64,000 nucleotides of DNA, from contig NZ_CM020866.1 of NCBI RefSeq assembly GCF_009866525.1, positions 1,366,832-1,430,831 on the forward strand, written 5' to 3'. Source of the stretch: Spiroplasma poulsonii (GTDB lineage Bacteria > Bacillota_I > Bacilli_A > Mycoplasmatales > Mycoplasmataceae). A model generated the notes under the pieces. The model searched no databases. It saw nothing but the letters and a program-made list of their open reading frames with translations, and had not been told where the DNA came from. The position numbers were made by a program, and so were the translations under genes. This document shows, piece after piece, positions 3,215-58,983 of the stretch (position 1 is the first letter of the stretch; every line of letters starts with the position of its first letter).

Positions 3215-3403
3215 TTATTTATCTCCTTGTCATTTAATATTGCTATCTTCTAAATCAATAATAGTTGTTAATCAATGATTTTCATTTTCAACATTAGCAG
3301 TAATCCTCGCTTCTTCTAATGTATAAAAAAAATCTGTTTTAAAAATAGTTGTTTTATCAAACAAATTATTATATTTCATTATTAATACGTATCTTTTATT
3401 CAT
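3215..3403 (-). CDS. Small protein in recT operon
   Basis: This encodes 62 residues beginning 'MNKRYVLIMKYNNLFDKT', with mixed beta-strand-like character and two in-frame TGA (Trp) codons near the end. It has a strong Shine-Dalgarno sequence 'taggaggaatt'. Its stop overlaps the ribosome binding site of the next gene. It has no recognisable domain and is part of the tightly packed phage-type operon. Confidence 0.6.
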
Positions 3404-3458
3404 AATTTAATTCCTCCTAATTTTGTTTCCCTAATGCTCAATGTTCATCAGTCATATC

Positions 3459-3575
3459 TTAAAATGATACTGAATAACTTTTAAACATTAATTCTTGTAA
3501 TTTGTTTTCTTGATTGCATTTTGAGCAATATCCTCAATATTTTTGTTTAAGACAAATTTTATTTAACTTTTTCAT
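3459..3575 (-). CDS. 38-residue protein with a CxxC knuckle, first gene of recT operon
   Basis: This encodes 38 residues with a 'YCSKCNQE' C-x2-C pair and one further upstream Cys, suggesting a small metal-binding knuckle. The ribosome binding site 'aggaggtaa' lies just upstream of the ATG at 3575. It is the promoter-proximal member of the leftward operon ending with the resolvase. It is very short, so coding is inferred from the ribosome binding site, the Trp-TGA usage and the spacing to the next gene. Confidence 0.5.
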
Positions 3576-3609
3576 ATTTACCTCCTAAATTATTTTTCCT
3601 ATTTTTTAA

Positions 3610-3649
3610 CTCGCTGGCACTCACTACCAAGTGAAAGTGCCAAAGCGAG
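3610..3649. repeat. Long imperfect hairpin in GC-richer viral-type intergenic DNA
   Basis: CTCGCT pairs with AGCGAG, and inside it GGCACT pairs with AGTGCC and CACT with AGTG, leaving a small loop. The surrounding 3600-3830 segment has no clear gene. It contains further short inverted repeats (for example 'cagagag...ctctctc') and is clearly richer in G+C than the flanks. It resembles the structured intergenic region of filamentous viruses and could hold an origin or packaging signal. Confidence 0.5.
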
Positions 3650-3840
3650 AATTAGTTATATAAGTATTGTATTTATCTATTTTATTTACTACGCCATCCG
3701 CTTCGCTGTGGGTGAGAGGTGGCGGTATGTTGTTAGTTAAATAATCGACAGTTGTTTTTTGTTTTTGTAGCCAGAGAGTTTTCTCTCTCTTCACCCGCAC
3801 CATTTCAGGTCAAAGCGTTCAGTTTTTAAAATAAATCTAC

Positions 3841-4065
3841 TTGCACCTTGAAGAGCCTAATGCTGACTTTGTGGTTTTTAAACCGCTGTCACTTCTAAGA
3901 AGTAATATCTATCGCAAATTTATTTATAAAGTGACCATCTCTTTTGTTTATTGTGGTTCGATGTTGACCGCGCACTTATCACCACTATCGCTTGTTAAAG
4001 CGTCTATTATTTCCGGACTGATTACCGCTGTGCTAGACCGCCTCCTGTGGAATAAAAACACTTAG
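3841..4065 (+). CDS. Hypothetical short protein, GC-richer codon use
   Basis: A 74-residue frame opens with TTG straight after an in-frame stop; an internal ATG at 3961 is an alternative start. It has two hydrophobic stretches ('ISFVYCGSML' and 'SLVKASIISGLITAVL') and ends 'LDRLLWNKNT'. It uses CTG, ACC and TGG codons rare elsewhere in the window and no TGA, so it is of different origin from its neighbours. No good ribosome binding site precedes the TTG. It may be a fragment of a plectrovirus membrane protein; coding status is uncertain. Confidence 0.35.
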   Translation: MHLEEPNADFVVFKPLSLLRSNIYRKFIYKVTISFVYCGSMLTAHLSPLSLVKASIISGLITAVLDRLLWNKNT

Positions 4066-4093
4066 TTATTTAAAATAACCGTTCCACTCTGCA

Positions 4094-4333
4094 TTAAGTT
4101 GTTTTATAAAATCAAAGTTTTAAAAAACCAGTTTTATAATCAAAGATAATTTTTGAATTTTCTAAACGTTTATAAAACCACTCTTGGTTTTTATCTTTTG
4201 TATGATTTAATAAATTTTTATGTTTTTCACAAGTTCATAAAACTTTATTTGATAAAAATTCTTTGGTAATGAATGATATTGATTTATAGCAATCAATAAC
4301 ATCACATATTTTTTGTTGTTTATTAATTTCCAT
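4094..4333 (-). CDS. Small hypothetical protein, phage/plasmid type
   Basis: This encodes 79 residues, basic and aromatic-rich, beginning 'MEINKQQKICDVIDCYKS'. It needs TGA as Trp twice. A 'gaaggagtaag' ribosome binding site sits just upstream of the ATG at 4333. There is no recognisable domain. The following 4334-4574 stretch holds no supported gene. Confidence 0.5.
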
Positions 4334-51550: not shown

Positions 51551-51730
51551 ATGAAAATTGAAATTTATCACAGGATTATTAATTGCTTAGAAAACATTCG
51601 TATGCATTTAAGATTAAGCCAATTAAAATTTGCCGCATACTTTTCCTTTACACGGGAAGGATATCGCCTTGCTATTGCAAAAGATACTAACAAAAATAAA
51701 ACTTATGTTAAAATTGATTTAATTAACTAA
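51551..51730 (+). CDS. Small basic hypothetical protein
   Basis: This encodes 59 residues, basic and helical, starting 'MKIEIYHRIINCLENIRMHL'. The part 'LSQLKFAAYFSFTREGYRL' faintly recalls an HTH regulator helix pair. Ribosome binding site 'aacaggagaatt' supports the start. It lies between hpt and the viral region. Promoter-like 'TTGGTT...' and 'TAAAAT' strings occur just upstream. Function unknown. Confidence 0.45.
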   Translation: MKIEIYHRIINCLENIRMHLRLSQLKFAAYFSFTREGYRLAIAKDTNKNKTYVKIDLIN

Positions 51731-51905
51731 CACAACTCAACATCAAAAAAACCCAATAAACATAAGGGGTTAAAAAATTAGACCCTCATAAAATAATGGT
51801 TTTAGAACAGTGTTTTCCGACATTTTAAATTTAAAAAAAATTGTAAAATTATAAAAGATATATTATAATCAAAATAACTTTCAGATATAAACACTTAATT
51901 ATATT

Positions 51906-52972
51906 AGACTTCTTGCATTACTTGTTAAAAAATTGCAAATATTTGTAAAAAAGATACTAATAGAAAAATATAATTTTAATTAATTATGTTTTTTATTTAA
52001 AAATTTAATATTTTTCCACAACGAAAAATTAATTTATTATTTAAATTATTTAATTTTAAATAAATATTTTATGTTAAATATAATAATTGTAAATTATAAA
52101 TTGATGCAATTAAATTAAATCTTAAACCAAATCTTTTTCTTCGATTACGATATTTTTCTGTAATAATTTTAAATTTTTTAAGAATAGCAAAAATATTTTC
52201 AATAATAATTCTCATTTTTGAAACTAGTCTATTATATTGCTTTTGTTCTTTGTTTAAAGGGTTTTTCTTTGTTTTCTTTGTAGGTATTAGAACATTATTG
52301 TGATTTTTTTGTATTCCTTGATAACCACTATCAACTATTAATTTGGTATTTTTTAAAATTGGGATTTTTGATTCTTTAAATAAAGCATAATCATGTTTTT
52401 TTCCGAGCGAAAAACTTGTTGCAATAATTTTTTTGGTTTCTTGTTCGATAATTACTTGTGTTTTGATCGTGTGTTTTTTCTTTTTACCAGAATAAGATTG
52501 TTTTTGTCTTTTTTTGGGCGTTGGATTGGAGTTTCGGTAGCATCAATAATAATAGTTTTATCATTAAAATAATCATTTATTAGTGCTTTTTTACCAGCAA
52601 GTTGTTGAAAATCAGAGTTTTTAATTAAAATATCTTCAATTCACTTAATATTACGATAACAATTAGCCTCACTAATATCAAAACTTTTACCAAGATGAAA
52701 ATAAGTCTGATATTCTCGTCAATATAATAAAGTCATCAATAATCTATTTTCTAATGATAATTTATTAGTTTTACCACCTTTTTTAAATTTTTCTATTTCA
52801 GCAACTTTTAAAATATCTAACATTTTATTAAAAGTGGATTTTTTTATTCCTGTTAATCTTAACCATTCTCTATCATTAAGAGTATTAAATTTATTATTGT
52901 TCATATTTTTATGTCCTCATAAATTATATTTTATAATAATATTTTAATAAAAAAGGGTATCGCAAGAAGTCT
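51906..52972 (-). mobile_element. IS5-family element, copy 8 (reverse)
   Basis: It is 1,067 bp; ATT lies at 51903-51905 and 52973-52975. It is inserted at the left edge of the plectrovirus remnant. Confidence 0.95.
52069..52904 (-). CDS. IS5-family transposase (frameshifted form), copy 8
   Basis: It is like the reference copy at 33068. One substitution near 52106 changes Ala in 'LIASIYN' to another residue (G to T on the plus strand). Confidence 0.85.
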
Positions 52973-52997
52973 ATTGAAAGTTTCAAACTATTTATAG

Positions 52998-53012
52998 TTT
53001 CCTTGAGCGGAA
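52998..53012 (+). repeat. Leader motif TTTCCTTGAGCGGAA, copy 1
   Basis: A 15-base motif lies 48 bases upstream of the viral rep ATG and is preceded by a dyad ('AAACTATTTATAGTTT'). It is identical to 55276-55290 ahead of the next viral ORF; a shorter CCTTGAGC is at 55108-55115. It may be a Rep nick site, a transcription or translation control element, or both. Confidence 0.6.
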
Positions 53013-53708
53013 TTTTTAAATGTAATTTAGTGTTTTTTTATTTGAAAGGAGTTTATAAAAATGAATAATGTTTTTATTTACGATAATTTAAAGATTAATA
53101 GTCATAATATATTTATGAATAAATTAAATTATGCTAAAAGAGAATATTATTTAAAAAAAGTATTTTATGGTAATTATGTTAAAAATATTGTTTTACCACT
53201 AGATATAATTAATAATATCCCCCGTAATAAAGATGGTATTAAAAATACTGGGAAAAATGATAAAAAGTTATTAAATAGTCGTATTCGTACACAAGGAAAT
53301 TGTATCCGTAAAGCATATCATAATTTTTCAAATTCTAAAAATTTAAGTTTTCTAACTTTAACTTATGCTGTTAATGAAACGGATGTTAAAAAGTGTAAAT
53401 ATGATTTAATGAAATTCTTTCAAAATATTAATCGTTGATATAATAACCCAATTAGAGCAAAACATCATAAAGGAATTTTAAAATATATGTATAATTATGA
53501 GTATCAAAAACGGGGAGCAGCCCATTTTCATATAATCTTAAACCAAAAAATACCAAATAGTACTGTACAACAGTATTGAAAACACGGTATTAATAAAAAT
53601 ATTAAAGTTCGTAGTGGAACAAACGAAGATGTTGTTAAATATCTTGCTAAATATATTGTTAAAACTGCTAATAATGATAAGTCACAAAATCATTATGATT
53701 TAAACATT

Positions 53709-54775
53709 AGACTTCTTGCGATACCCTTTTTTATTAAAATATTATTATAAAATATAATTTATGAGGACATAAAAATATGAACAATAATAAATTTAATACT
53801 CTTAATGATAGAGAATGGTTAAGATTAACAGGAATAAAAAAATCCACTTTTAATAAAATGTTAGATATTTTAAAAGTTGCTGAAATAGAAAAATTTAAAA
53901 AAGGTGGTAAAACTAATAAATTATCATTAGAAAATAGATTATTGATGACTTTATTATATTGACGAGAATATCAGACTTATTTTCATCTTGGTAAAAGTTT
54001 TGATATTAGTGAGGCTAATTGTTATCGTAATATTAAGTGAATTGAAGATATTTTAATTAAAAACTCTGATTTTCAACAACTTGCTGGTAAAAAAGCACTA
54101 ATAAATGATTATTTTAATGATAAAACTATTATTATTGATGCTACCGAAACTCCAATCCAACGCCCAAAAAAAGACAAAAACAATCTTATTCTGGTAAAAA
54201 GAAAAAACACACGATCAAAACACAAGTAATTATCGAACAAGAAACCAAAAAAATTATTGCAACAAGTTTTTCGCTCGGAAAAAAACATGATTATGCTTTA
54301 TTTAAAGAATCAAAAATCCCAATTTTAAAAAATACCAAATTAATAGTTGATAGTGGTTATCAAGGAATACAAAAAAATCACAATAATGTTCTAATACCTA
54401 CAAAGAAAACAAAGAAAAACCCTTTAAACAAAGAACAAAAGCAATATAATAGACTAGTTTCAAAAATGAGAATTATTATTGAAAATATTTTTGCTATTCT
54501 TAAAAAATTTAAAATTATTACAGAAAAATATCGTAATCGAAGAAAAAGATTTGGTTTAAGATTTAATTTAATTGCCTCAATTTATAATTTACAATTATTA
54601 TATTTAACATAAAATATTTATTTAAAATTAAATAATTTAAATAATAAATTAATTTTTCGTTGTGGAAAAATATTAAATTTTTAAATAAAAAACATAATTA
54701 ATTAAAATTATATTTTTCTATTAGTATCTTTTTTACAAATATTTGCAATTTTTTAACAAGTAATGCAAGAAGTCT
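53709..54775 (+). mobile_element. IS5-family element, copy 9 (intact, inside viral rep)
   Basis: It is 1,067 bp, with ATT at 53706-53708 and 54776-54778. Removal restores the rep frame. Confidence 0.95.
53777..54612 (+). CDS. IS5-family transposase (frameshifted form), copy 9
   Basis: It is intact and like the reference copy at 33068, including the A7 slip site. Confidence 0.85.
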
Positions 54776-55063
54776 ATTAAAGCATATCAATTTAGTCGTA
54801 ATTGTAAAAACCCAAAAATAAAAGTTGGGGTTGTTGAATTAGATACATTAGATTTAATTCTGTCATCTGATGAAACACTTAATTATTTTAGTTTTGGTAA
54901 TAAGCAAGGTATTCGTGTTGGTTTTAGTTGTGATAGTTATTATGGTTTAGATAAATTTAGAGAATTTAAAAAATATGTTTCACACGAAAGTAAAATGTGA
55001 AGAAATCAAAATAATAAAATAATTGAAAATTACAAAAATAAATTTAAAAATTTAAGGTGTTAA

Positions 55064-55458
55064 AATTAAAAAATGAGTTAAAAACTCATTAAAAAAAGTG
55101 GCAATTGCCTTGAGCAACAATCACCACAAATTAATTAAAACAAAAAAAACAAGATGGGGATGTATATTTTACAATATATTTAATTTTGTGTTGAAAATTT
55201 GACTTTTTAATATTTTATTGTATTATTAATTTAACTTAAACATTTTATTGTGTTTGAGTTTTAAATCTTAAAAGATTTCCTTGAGCGGAACTTAAATATA
55301 ATTAAATGATTTTTATATTTTATTTATAAATTTATTCAAATAAAAAACACTAACTTTGTAGCAATAAATATTTTAATTAATCATTTTTATATTTAAGTTT
55401 TAATTTTTTAAGAAATCTTTTAAGAAACTATATAGTTTTTTAAAAGGAGATTTCAAAT
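55064..55458 (+). other. Plectrovirus intergenic/leader region
   Basis: No gene. A hairpin ATGAGTT / AACTCAT lies just after rep (55073-55089). The leader motif TTTCCTTGAGCGGAA occurs at 55276-55290. A complementary pair 'TCTTAAAAGATT' (55266) and 'AATCTTTTAAGA' (55417) could fold the whole leader, and the dyad 'AAACTATATAGTTT' sits before the ribosome binding site at 55443. Confidence 0.5.
55276..55290 (+). repeat. Leader motif TTTCCTTGAGCGGAA, copy 2
   Basis: It is identical to 52998-53012, and lies 169 bases upstream of the next viral ORF start. Confidence 0.6.
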
Positions 55459-55537
55459 ATGAAATATTTAGTGATGTTAACAAAGGTTAACAAAAATAAA
55501 GTTATTAAAAATAACAAAACTGGTAAAGAAGACTATT
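55459..55537 (+). pseudogene. Plectrovirus ORF, N-terminal fragment
   Basis: A start with a strong ribosome binding site 'aaaaggagattt' encodes 'MKYLVMLTKVNKNKVIKNNK' and six more residues before the IS at 55538. Position after rep suggests the small protein that follows Rep in these viruses; function unknown. The remainder is lost. Confidence 0.5.
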
Positions 55538-56279
55538 AGACTTCTTGCGATACCCTTTTTTATTAAAATATTATTATAAAATATAATTTATGAGGACATA
55601 AAAATATGAACAATAATAAATTTAATACTCTTAATGATAGAGAATGGTTAAGATTAACAGGAATAAAAAAATCCACTTTTAATAAAATGTTAGATATTTT
55701 AAAAGTTGCTGAAATAGAAAAATTTAAAAAAGGTGGTAAAACTAATAAATTATCATTAGAAAATAGATTATTGATGACTTTATTATATTGACGAGAATAT
55801 CAGACTTATTTTCATCTTGGTAAAAGTTTTGATATTAGTGAGGCTAATTGTTATCGTAATATTAAGTGAATTGAAGATATTTTAATTAAAAACCCTGATT
55901 TTCAACAACTTGCTGGTAAAAAAGCACTAATAAATGATTATTTTAATGATAAAACTATTATTATTGATGCTACCGAAACTCCAATCCAACGCCCAAAAAA
56001 AGACAAAAACAATCTTATTCTGGTAAAAAGAAAAAACACACGATCAAAACACAAGTAATTATCGAACAAGAAACCAAAAAAATTATTGCAACAAGTTTTT
56101 CGCTCGGAAAAAAACATGATTATGCTTTATTTAAAGAATCAAAAATCCCAATTTTAAAAAATACCAAATTAATAGTTGATAGTGGTTATCAAGGAATACA
56201 AAAAAATCACAATAATGTTCTAATACCTACAAAGAAAACAAAGAAAAACCCTTTAAACAAAGAACAAAAGCAATATAAT
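55538..56279 (+). mobile_element. IS5-family element, copy 10 (5' two thirds)
   Basis: It runs from the left end to the sequence 'aaagcaatataat' inside the second half of the transposase, where a reverse copy is joined. ATT precedes it (55535-55537). The final 325 bases are missing. It has a Ser to Pro change at 'NSDFQQ'. Confidence 0.9.
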
Positions 56280-57345
56280 AGACTTCTTGCATTACTTGTT
56301 AAAAAATTGCAAATATTTGTAAAAAAGATACTAATAGAAAAATATAATTTTAATTAATTATGTTTTTTATTTAAAAATTTAATATTTTTCCACAACGAAA
56401 AATTAATTTATTATTTAAATTATTTAATTTTAAATAAATATTTTATGTTAAATATAATAATTGTAAATTATAAATTGAGGCAATTAAATTAAATCTTAAA
56501 CCAAATCTTTTTCTTCGATTACGATATTTTTCTGTAATAATTTTAAATTTTTTAAGAATAGCAAAAATATTTTCAATAATAATTCTCATTTTTGAAACTA
56601 GTCTATTATATTGCTTTTGTTCTTTGTTTAAAGGGTTTTTCTTTGTTTTCTTTGTAGGTATTAGAACATTATTGTGATTTTTTTGTATTCCTTGATAACC
56701 ACTATCAACTATTAATTTGGTATTTTTTAAAATTGGGATTTTTGATTCTTTAAATAAAGCATAATCATGTTTTTTTTCGAGCGAAAAACTTGTTGCAATA
56801 ATTTTTTTGGTTTCTTGTTCGATAATTACTTGTGTTTTGATCGTGTGTTTTTTCTTTTTACCAGAATAAGATTGTTTTTGTCTTTTTTTGGGCGTTGGAT
56901 TGGAGTTTCGGTAGCATCAATAATAATAGTTTTATCATTAAAATAATCATTTATTAGTGCTTTTTTACCAGCAAGTTGTTGAAAATCAGAGTTTTTAATT
57001 AAAATATCTTCAATTCACTTAATATTACGATAACAATTAGCCTCACTAATATCAAAACTTTTACCAAGATGAAAATAAGTCTGATATTCTCGTCAATATA
57101 ATAAAGTCATCAATAATCTATTTTCTAATGATAATTTATTAGTTTTACCACCTTTTTTAAATTTTTCTATTTCAGCAACTTTTAAAATATCTAACATTTT
57201 ATTAAAAGTGGATTTTTTTATTCCTGTTAATCTTAACCATTCTCTATCATTAAGAGTATTAAATTTATTATTGTTCATATTTTTATGTCCTCATAAATTA
57301 TATTTTATAATAATATTTTAATAAAAAGGGTATCGCAAGAAGTCT
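56280..57345 (-). mobile_element. IS5-family element, copy 11 (reverse, nested)
   Basis: It is 1,066 bp (one A fewer in the left-end A run). AAT lies at 56277-56279, inside copy 10, and at 57346-57348, but the right flank is viral coding DNA and not the rest of copy 10. So a deletion or IS-IS recombination accompanied or followed insertion. Confidence 0.9.
56443..57278 (-). CDS. IS5-family transposase (frameshifted form), copy 11
   Basis: It is like the reference copy at 33068; one Gly to Glu replacement in 'FSLGKKHDY'. Confidence 0.85.
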
Positions 57346-57849
57346 AATGATTATTTTTCTTATTTTTCAAATTGAGATTATATTACTGATGTTTTGCCTT
57401 CTAACAATGATAAATATATTCAATCAATAAAATTATTAGATATGACAGATAAATCAAAGTATCAAGGTTTTAATTTAATTAGATTTAATACGACTAGGTT
57501 AACTGAAAATAATAGTATTTCAATTAATGGGTTTAATTTTAGCATTTATAATGCTACTGATTGAAACAATGAGATTAATGGTGGCGATATTTGGGAAATA
57601 CCTTATAAAAATTGTAGTTGATATAATGTTGCGTGTCATATACAAAATGCGGCGATTTGATTAGTAAATAATTTGCCTGGTATGAAAGATGTTTATAATT
57701 TTGTTAATGGGATAGTATATGTATTTAGCAATGTATCTGATTTATTTAATAATATTGGTAATTTGTTTGCTTTTGATATTACATTTAAGATTATGTTAAG
57801 TTCTATTTTAGTGTTAGCAATGGTTAATGGACTTTTACGATATTTTTAG
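57346..57849 (+). pseudogene. Large plectrovirus virion-type protein, C-terminal part (SpV1 ORF1-like)
   Basis: An open frame from the IS edge to TAG at 57847 gives 167 residues. An extracellular-type stretch with 'YKNCSWYNVACHIQNAAIWL' (paired Cys and Trp) is followed by a single C-terminal membrane helix 'FKIMLSSILVLAMVNGLL'. This architecture, an anchored attachment protein, and the location next to the origin hairpins fit the large SpV1 ORF1 product. The N-terminal portion is missing. Confidence 0.6.
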
Positions 57850-57871
57850 TATATAATGTTGTTAGTAAAAA

Positions 57872-57956
57872 TAAGTAAGGCGGTGTGGTGGTTTATCCAC
57901 GCACCGCCTTACTTAAACGGGTAAAAGTCGCGTAGCGACTTAGGGGCAACGCCCCT
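57872..57956. repeat. Cluster of three GC-rich hairpins, plectrovirus origin/packaging candidate
   Basis: Hairpin 1: TAAGTAAGGCGGTG (57872-57885) pairs perfectly with 57902-57915. Hairpin 2: AAGTCGC / GCGACTT with a GTA loop (57925-57941). Hairpin 3: AGGGGC / GCCCCT with an AAC loop (57942-57956). They follow the virion protein gene. In filamentous viruses such stacked hairpins form the intergenic origin and packaging signal; that role is inferred here. Confidence 0.7.
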
Positions 57957-58233
57957 TTACTTGATCCATATTTTAACAACAATCTTATATAACTTAGAAA
58001 ATTATGATTTATGAAAGAAAAAAGCTTCTTTAATCATTACCGAAATTGAATCGTGTTTTACCAAATATTACCAAAAATTAATTACTTTTCAGTAATTTGC
58101 TAAAAATTATTAGCACTTTATTCATAATTATTTTATTTAAATTATTTTAGAAAGGGGGAATTTATTATTAGCCTAAAACATAATAAAATCTGAATGAAAC
58201 ATCATACTTTACAAATAAGAAAGGAAAATAAAC
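57957..58233. other. Spacer between viral remnant and glp operon
   Basis: No gene is seen. It holds the end of the viral sequence and, further right, the AT-rich upstream region of glpF, with 'TAATAAAATC' about 50 bases and 'agaaaggaaa' just before the start. The exact promoter is not clear. Confidence 0.4.
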
Positions 58234-58983
58234 ATGGCAAATACCCAATTATTTTTTCAACATTTTGGTTTAGAAATGTTCGGCACAATGCTTTTAATTA
58301 TTTTAGGAAATGGTGTCGTTGCTAACATTTTATTAAAAAATACAAAAGGAAATGGACAAGGTTTTTTTGCAATTACTGCCGGCTGAGGTTTTGCGGTGCT
58401 AGTTGGAGCAATGGCTAGTAGCGCTCTAAAAGGAGTTGCTCATTTAAATCCAGCAGTAACATTTGCAATGGTTGTTCAACAAACTTGATTTATTAATAAC
58501 GGGTGATTCTTACTACCAGCCTTATTATTAGGGCAAGTTGCTGGGGCTTTAATTGGCCAAATTATTGTAGATATCTTTTATTGAAAACATATTAAAGATA
58601 CTGTTAATGATAATCCCGATTTTATTCTTGCGATGCATGCAACAGGACCAACTTATCGTCCTGCCTTCTTTAACTTTTTTGCTGAATTTATTGGAACATT
58701 TCTATTAGTTGCCGCAATTTTAGCAATTGGTAAATATGAAACATTTAGTTTGGGGACATGAGGGCCACTATTTGTTGGTTTAACAGTTTTTGGAATTGGA
58801 ATCTCATTAGGAGGAACAACTGGTTATGCCATTAACCCTGTTCGAGACTTAATTCCAAGAATTGTTCATTTTGTTTTACCATTAAAAAATAAAGGCAACT
58901 CAGATTGAAGTTATAGTTGAATTCCAGTTGTAGCACCAACATGTGCTGGTCTTGCTACTGGCGGAATCTTCTTACTATTTTAA
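58234..58983 (+). CDS. glpF: Glycerol facilitator (aquaglyceroporin)
   Basis: This encodes 249 residues with six helices. The two pore motifs are '[10 protein letters not shown]' and '[13 protein letters not shown]'; the Asp after the second motif is the glycerol-facilitator hallmark, though NPV replaces the usual NPA. It lets glycerol enter. It is the first gene of glpF-glpO-glpK, with gaps of 31 and 18 bases. Trp codons are mostly TGA. Confidence 0.9.

What the first reader, a model, noticed from the sequence alone, without database searches (positions are those of the whole stretch)
57872..57956. Three consecutive GC-rich hairpins, candidate plectrovirus origin/packaging signal
A 14-bp perfect stem and two shorter GC stems lie in a row right after the virion gene in otherwise AT-rich DNA. 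This parallels the hairpin-filled intergenic region of filamentous phages. A second hairpin-rich, GC-richer segment at 3610-3830 may be the counterpart from another viral genome.
Basis: partly seen in the sequence, partly recalled or inferred. Interest (0 to 1): 0.55.

Follow-up and report, generated by a model that had tools for sequence, protein, structure and literature searches.

The report
Virus origin hairpins mark integration point
Three DNA hairpins in this Spiroplasma chromosome are the replication-origin end of an old rod-shaped virus, and comparing copies in related bacteria suggests the virus enters chromosomes by being cut open at this very spot, probably by its own replication enzyme.

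Summary
The three hairpins are real and far beyond chance. They are not an isolated signal. They are the right-hand end of a decayed SVTS2-type plectrovirus provirus (51722-57963), which splits a host ORF upstream of a glycerol-uptake operon. The same cassette lies between ORF1 and rep in replicating SVTS2 (where GenBank already annotates a stem_loop) and, more diverged, in SVGII3. It ends in CTTG|ATTAA(C/G)TA, like the CTTGATA nick site of rolling-circle replicons. Across relatives, 22 of 40 cassettes continue into virus sequence after CTTG and 18 into other DNA. Of those 18, 13 continue with AT. Proviral left ends begin with the base that follows CTTG in the viral circle. So the provirus is the viral circle opened at the putative nick. 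Unoccupied sites show no target duplication: 0 or 1 base is lost. Targets resemble TTTA^AT. The six genomes examined have no tyrosine or serine recombinase; Rep has HUH and YxxxY motifs and weak Y2-transposase/Helitron similarity. Best reading: rolling-circle origin whose Rep also integrates the virus, IS91/Helitron-like. Origin role likely; Rep as integrase inferred, untested. The 3610-3830 segment belongs to an unrelated 19-kb phage.

The parts
51722..57963 (+). Decayed SVTS2-type plectrovirus provirus, interrupted by insertion sequences; left end ATTAACTAACACAAC, right end CTTG
   Evidence: left and right flanks contiguous in unoccupied genomes G009 and G010
57872..57915 (+). Hairpin 1, 14-bp perfect stem, 16-nt loop
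57925..57941 (+). Hairpin 2, 7-bp stem, 3-nt loop
57942..57956 (+). Hairpin 3, 6-bp stem, 3-nt loop
57960..57963 (+). CTTG, putative 3' side of the Rep nick site and right terminus of the provirus; host sequence starts at 57964
51722..51736 (+). Left terminus of the provirus (ATTAACTAACACAAC), the sequence that follows CTTG in circular SVTS2
57394..57849 (+). 3' remnant of plectrovirus ORF1 (attachment protein, DUF3688)
53061..53750 (+). Rep remnant (REP_ORF2-G2P, HFH and YLAKY present), cut short by an insertion sequence
51551..51721 (+). 5' part of the host ORF split by the provirus; the 3' part continues from 57964
   Evidence: intact 100-aa ORF in G009 (L114)
52452..52904 (-). Transposase ORF of an insertion sequence inside the provirus (HTH_Tnp_4); ORFs of the same length at 53777-54229, 55606-56058 and 56826-57278 were not scanned

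Best explanation
The hairpin block is the rolling-circle replication origin region of an SVTS2-type plectrovirus, and its 3' edge, CTTG^AT, is where the virus is opened. Inferred mechanism: the viral HUH two-tyrosine Rep (G2P type) cuts CTTG^ATTAAC beside the hairpins to start rolling-circle replication. Sometimes, instead of closing the new strand into a circle, it joins the strand to a host site of the form TTTA^AT. Host DNA synthesis then fixes a seamless insertion that runs from ATTAAC to CTTG. Shown here: the anatomy, its conservation, the position of the proviral ends, the lack of target duplication, the target preference, and the absence of tyrosine and serine recombinase families in six genomes. 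Inferred: that Rep cuts there, and that Rep does the joining.
For: Cassette conserved in SVTS2 and SVGII3 and with compensatory stem changes in 19 distinct copies: 94.7% of cells paired against 37-52% when slid; 4 pairs with changes on both sides against 0.7 in shuffles. Cassette followed by CTTG in 40 copies: 22 continue into virus sequence, 18 do not (the pattern required CTTG). CTTGATA is cited as the Rep_1 nick site (PMC10378824, passage). Proviral left ends begin ATTAA(C/G)TA. One provirus in G005 is 6826 bp, against 6825 for the SVTS2 record. Unoccupied sites: window site in G009 and G010; two G007 proviruses against SpV1-C74 and others, the first with no gap at the junction; a second G005 site. 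Right flank AT in 13 of 18 against 12% background. TTTA^AT seen at the window site and in two paralogues of the G002 target. PF00589 and PF00239 each found in 0 of 6 genomes, with controls ringing in 14 and 10 of 14. Rep family PF23343 in 5 of 14 genomes, all among the 6 with the cassette. HFH and YxxxY in 6 of 6 Rep sequences compared; weak Helitron_like_N and Y2_Tnp hits.
Against: No biochemical proof of nicking. 5 of 18 right flanks are not AT (GT, AG, CT, TT, AA) and 9 of 16 left flanks do not end in TTA. Two G005 insertions are one base shorter than the unoccupied sites. One G004 left flank carries about 12 extra bases, another G004 site is disturbed, and one G007 site is unclear. G008 has two cassette remnants but no Rep. 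Y2_Tnp and Helitron_like_N hits lie below Pfam cut-offs. The Rep fold prediction failed (mean pLDDT 39.6), and no solved relative was found by sequence.
Confidence: 0.6

Rival explanations
1. Passive capture: replicative-form DNA nicked at the origin breaks there and is sealed into chromosomal breaks by host end joining or illegitimate recombination; Rep only makes the nick.
For: Explains the fixed ends and the one-base losses at two G005 sites. TT and AT are shared between CTTG^AT and TTTA^AT, so microhomology could contribute.
Against: At the window site and in the G007 provirus compared base by base, no base is lost or gained, which end joining rarely gives. AT at 13 of 18 right flanks and re-use of one host site in two species point to a sequence-preferring enzyme.
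Confidence: 0.22
2. The hairpins are only a packaging signal and/or minus-strand origin, as first suggested for SVTS2; the proviral ends fall there for an unrelated reason.
For: A 2005 paper reports that the SVTS2 structure was attributed to phage packaging. [quoted passage not shown]
Against: Does not explain the constant CTTG/ATTAAC ends. A packaging role for hairpin 1 is compatible with the best explanation and cannot be excluded.
Confidence: 0.1
3. A DDE transposase acts in trans (for example the ORF3 transposase of SpV1-type phages, or a host insertion sequence).
For: SpV1-type phages with ORF3 (annotated putative transposase in C74) infect these bacteria, and ICTV ascribes their replication to transposition.
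Against: No target duplication at the resolved sites. No terminal inverted repeat between ATTAACTAAC and the CTTG end (sequence).
Confidence: 0.05
4. The hairpins are a transcription terminator of ORF1.
For: Position right after ORF1; R8A2B has an annotated putative terminator there.
Against: No terminator-like site found in 57700-58250; no run of T follows any of the three stems.
Confidence: 0.03

Closest known systems
Plectrovirus SVTS2 (Suturavirus), intergenic stem_loop region, AF133242 2190-2265
   Same: Same place between ORF1 and rep, same three hairpins, same CTTG|AT
   Different: The window copy is a provirus end: after CTTG it runs into host DNA, and the rep-side half lies 6.2 kb upstream
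Double-strand origins of pC194/pUB110-type rolling-circle plasmids (nick site CTTGATA)
   Same: CTTGAT beside hairpins near rep; HUH Rep
   Different: Seventh base is T, not A; Rep falls in PF23343 (G2P type); three tandem GC hairpins; nicking untested
Helitron and IS91 rolling-circle transposition
   Same: HUH protein with two tyrosines (IS91: Y249 and Y253), no target duplication, hairpin just before the 3' end, AT target; CTTG-3' ends are reported for some Helraiser and maize Helitron insertions (PMC4778049, PMC5714925, passages)
   Different: Here the element is a packaged virus with a circular genome; Rep has no helicase hit; targets look like TTTA^AT rather than A^T
CTX-type filamentous phages integrated by host XerCD at dif (recalled)
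   Same: Filamentous ssDNA virus whose integration point lies near its origin region
   Different: Many unrelated sites here, and tyrosine recombinases found in 0 of 6 host genomes

Membership tests
SVTS2-type plectrovirus origin cassette | Homologous sequence after ORF1 with the three stems | tested here: met
SVTS2-type plectrovirus origin cassette | Rep gene of the same virus present | tested here: met
   Rep remnant 53061-53750 within the same provirus, broken by an insertion sequence
Rolling-circle double-strand origin | Conserved nick motif CTTGATA | tested here: inconclusive
   CTTGAT present, seventh base T in the virus and C in the window; motif cited from PMC10378824
Rolling-circle double-strand origin | Site-specific nicking by Rep | not testable with these tools
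   needs protein
HUH two-tyrosine initiators | HUH and YxxxY motifs | tested here: met
   HFH and Y(L/V)AKY in 6 of 6 sequences; PF23343 E 7.9e-21; fold prediction uninformative
IS91/Helitron-like rolling-circle transposition | Insertion without target duplication | tested here: met
   one base lost at two G005 sites
IS91/Helitron-like rolling-circle transposition | AT target (Helitrons) | tested here: met
   13 of 18 right flanks; a preference, not absolute
Helitron | RepHel protein with helicase and 5'-TC...CTRR-3' ends | tested here: not met
   Rep about 310-335 aa without a helicase-domain hit over cut-off; ends AT...CTTG
XerCD/tyrosine-recombinase integrating phage | Tyrosine recombinase in virus or host | tested here: not met
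   0 of 6 genomes, control 14 of 14
Serine-recombinase integrating phage | Resolvase-domain protein in virus or host | tested here: not met
   0 of 6 genomes, control 10 of 14
Intrinsic terminator | Stem followed by a T run | tested here: not met

The most novel reading that the evidence does not exclude
A filamentous ssDNA virus that uses its replication initiator as its integrase: Rep recognises YTTR^AT both at the viral origin hairpins and in the chromosome, so that recombinase-free Spiroplasma chromosomes fill with seamless insertions and head-to-tail arrays, the array junction being itself a preferred target.
Probability: 0.5. Interest if true: 0.75.

Novelty: new variant of a known kind. 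Interest (0 to 1): 0.6.

Why it matters
Plectrovirus insertions are abundant in several Spiroplasma genomes and complicate their assembly (PMC3563533, passages), and integrated SVTS2 DNA has been linked to virus resistance (cited in PMC8140453, passages). How Rep-bearing plectroviruses integrate is not stated in the texts I could read. If Rep does it, a bacterial virus would be doing what IS91 and Helitrons do, linking ssDNA virus replication to rolling-circle transposition, and the proviral end would give the nick position, which can then be tested directly.

Tried and rejected
Rejected: 3610-3830 as a plectrovirus counterpart (it is phage MaM-2019a). Rejected: terminator. Rejected: Xer or serine-recombinase integration. 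Rejected: strict IS91-like rule that the left host flank also ends in CTTG; none of the 16 left flanks listed does. Tried without use: the Rep structure prediction was too poor for a fold search, so none was run; PDB sequence search gave only chance hits; exact-pattern scans of public collections outside Spiroplasma gave matches that I judge unrelated from their sequences (sequences). The S13 unoccupied site was not clean. Papers by Sha 1995, Sha 2000 and Melcher 1999, the most relevant ones, are not held; so I cannot say that integration at the nick site is absent from print. Searches that found no statement of it in their listings.

Full report
What is there. The window lies in a Spiroplasma chromosome: G000, 1.97 Mb in 2 contigs, 13 other genomes of the same genus available. 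It is probably a S. poulsonii relative, inferred from a stretch 99.6% identical to a phage of S. poulsonii NSRO. At 57872-57956 stand three GC-rich hairpins as described. The fold is 7 standard deviations below shuffles, and hairpin 1 is the only GC-rich perfect 14-bp inverted repeat in the window by the criteria. They follow the 3' part of a plectrovirus ORF1 and precede a glycerol operon: MIP channel, FAD-dependent oxidoreductase, FGGY kinase.

What it belongs to. The stretch 57385-57965 is 88.4% identical to plectrovirus SVTS2 across the end of ORF1 and an annotated stem_loop that lies between ORF1 and rep. SVGII3 has a diverged version after its ORF1. SpV1-C74, R8A2B and SkV1-CR2-3x show no such block after ORF1. 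Among 14 Spiroplasma genomes, 7 gave a hit to the 276-bp query; one (G011) is only a 28-base ORF1 match, so I count 6 with the cassette. The Rep family PF23343 is present in 5 of 14, all among these 6; G008 has two cassette remnants and no Rep. In an alignment of 20 chosen copies (19 distinct; the window, SVTS2 and 18 from related genomes; one search lists 40 cassettes in all from the genomes), the stems hold with compensatory changes. Six diverged copies were aligned separately and not pair-counted.

The edge of the cassette. All 40 cassettes counted end in CTTG, but the pattern required it. In 22 the next bases are (A)ATTAA(C/G)TA, the sequence that follows CTTG in circular SVTS2. In 18 something else follows. 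Left ends of proviruses begin with that same ATTAA(C/G)TA, preceded by changing host sequence. Paired ends: in G005 a left end at 987629 and a right end at 994454 enclose 6826 bases (the SVTS2 record has 6825), 99.8% identical to SVTS2 over the 629 bases compared. The window provirus is 51722-57963, interrupted by insertion sequences that also truncate its rep.

Unoccupied sites. The flanks of the window provirus are contiguous in G009 (199 of 199 query bases, 92%) and G010. My typed join lacked one A, which both genomes have room for. With the provirus as it stands (left ...GATTTA, right ATCC...), flanks and the G009 site agree base for base in length. G005 carries its insertion at the same site, one A shorter. 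Its second provirus, compared with G009, G010, G001 and G003, is also one base shorter. In G007 two proviruses sit in a site that is unoccupied in SpV1-C74 and elsewhere: joined flanks of the first align without any gap to C74 and two other loci, and to three further loci with one or two gaps, none at the junction itself. In G002 one right end lies in a multi-copy repeat gene whose other copies read CCTTTA, CCATTA or CCACTA before ATTGA(A/G) in 7 of 8 loci looked at (CCATTA before GTTGAA in the eighth). Less clear: a G004 site with about 12 extra bases on the left; a G004 site whose two ends now lie apart (643561 and 730855) and are disturbed; a G007 site.

Target preference. Right flanks start with AT in 13 of 18 (background 12%, binomial 5e-9; 9 of 14 and 6e-6 if repeats of one site are merged). 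Left flanks end in TTA in 7 of 16 (background 4.9%). TTTA^AT and the viral CTTG^AT share TT and AT, so I write YTTR^AT; this is a summary by eye, not a fitted model.

Which enzyme. Tyrosine recombinases (PF00589) and serine recombinases (PF00239) were each found in 0 of 6 cassette-bearing genomes, while controls rang in 14 and 10 of 14. No target duplication argues against DDE transposases. A paper on S. melliferum discusses truncation and pseudogenisation of recA in these species (PMC3563533, passage). What remains on the virus itself is Rep: PF23343, E 7.9e-21, with weak RepSA, Helitron_like_N and Y2_Tnp hits below cut-off, and HFH plus Y(L/V)AKY in 6 of 6 sequences, of which the window copy is truncated and one (G002) lacks its start. 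The CTTGATA motif is cited as the conserved nick site of Rep_1-like origins (PMC10378824, passage); the virus has CTTGATT. HUH transposition by IS91 and Helitrons gives no target duplication (PMC5714925, passages). Helitrons insert at AT, with a hairpin 11 nucleotides before the 3' end in Helraiser, and CTTG-3' ends have been seen (PMC4778049, passages). Here hairpin 3 ends 7 nucleotides before the terminus.

How it most likely works. Shown: structure, conservation, end positions, absence of duplication, target bias, absence of two recombinase families. Inferred: Rep nicks CTTG^ATTAAC, stays on the 5' end, and at the end of a round either closes a circle or joins a host TTTA^AT-like site. Arrays such as G007 67982, 74796, 82984 fit either read-through or re-insertion at the origin. 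Hairpin 1 may serve packaging or minus-strand start, as the SVTS2 authors are reported to have thought of the structure (packaging). In folds of copies that continue into virus sequence, CTTGATTAAG often forms a small hairpin with the nick in its loop, and GTTGTT upstream can pair with AACACAAC downstream (RNA parameters, so only a hint).

Known and new. The hairpins themselves are known (GenBank stem_loop; packaging idea cited in PMC1318496). ICTV gives rolling-circle replication of Suturavirus 'by inference' (PMC8295915, whole text). The link between origin edge and proviral ends, the target preference and the lack of recombinases I did not find in the searches listed, but the three key older papers could not be read.

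Noticed in passing
L096:619-710, L097:9408-9499, L110:634-725, L111:665-756: In at least 4 of the 20 aligned cassettes the core of hairpin 1 is inverted (one orientation against its reverse complement), a flip-flop of the hairpin reminiscent of parvovirus terminal hairpins (comparison recalled).
   Followed up: no
L023, L039, L040, L102, L086:1944-2026: Short tandem duplications directly after the nick site (ATTAACTAG repeated two or three times; 21 or 79 bases repeated), as if Rep re-started or slipped there.
   Followed up: no
window 3400-4100: 99.6% identical to the 19-kb Spiroplasma phage MaM-2019a (capsid, head-tail connector, RecT and RuvC-like genes annotated nearby), with a 93-base, 75% match to SVTS2 ORF14.
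   Followed up: partly
G007:C1:469311, 1007076, 1080318, 1358175 and 786818: An insertion hot spot CAATTATATATAAAACAATAAAAAGG upstream of lipoprotein-like genes, hit at positions two bases apart and by viruses with different left ends.
   Followed up: partly
G004:C1:643561 and 730855: The two ends of what looks like one provirus lie 87 kb apart, suggesting a chromosomal rearrangement through the provirus.
   Followed up: no
window 52452-52904, 53777-54229, 55606-56058, 56826-57278: Four ORFs of the same 150-aa length inside the 6.2-kb provirus, the one scanned being an HTH_Tnp_4 transposase; one copy truncates rep. More ORFs of this length elsewhere in the window.
   Followed up: partly
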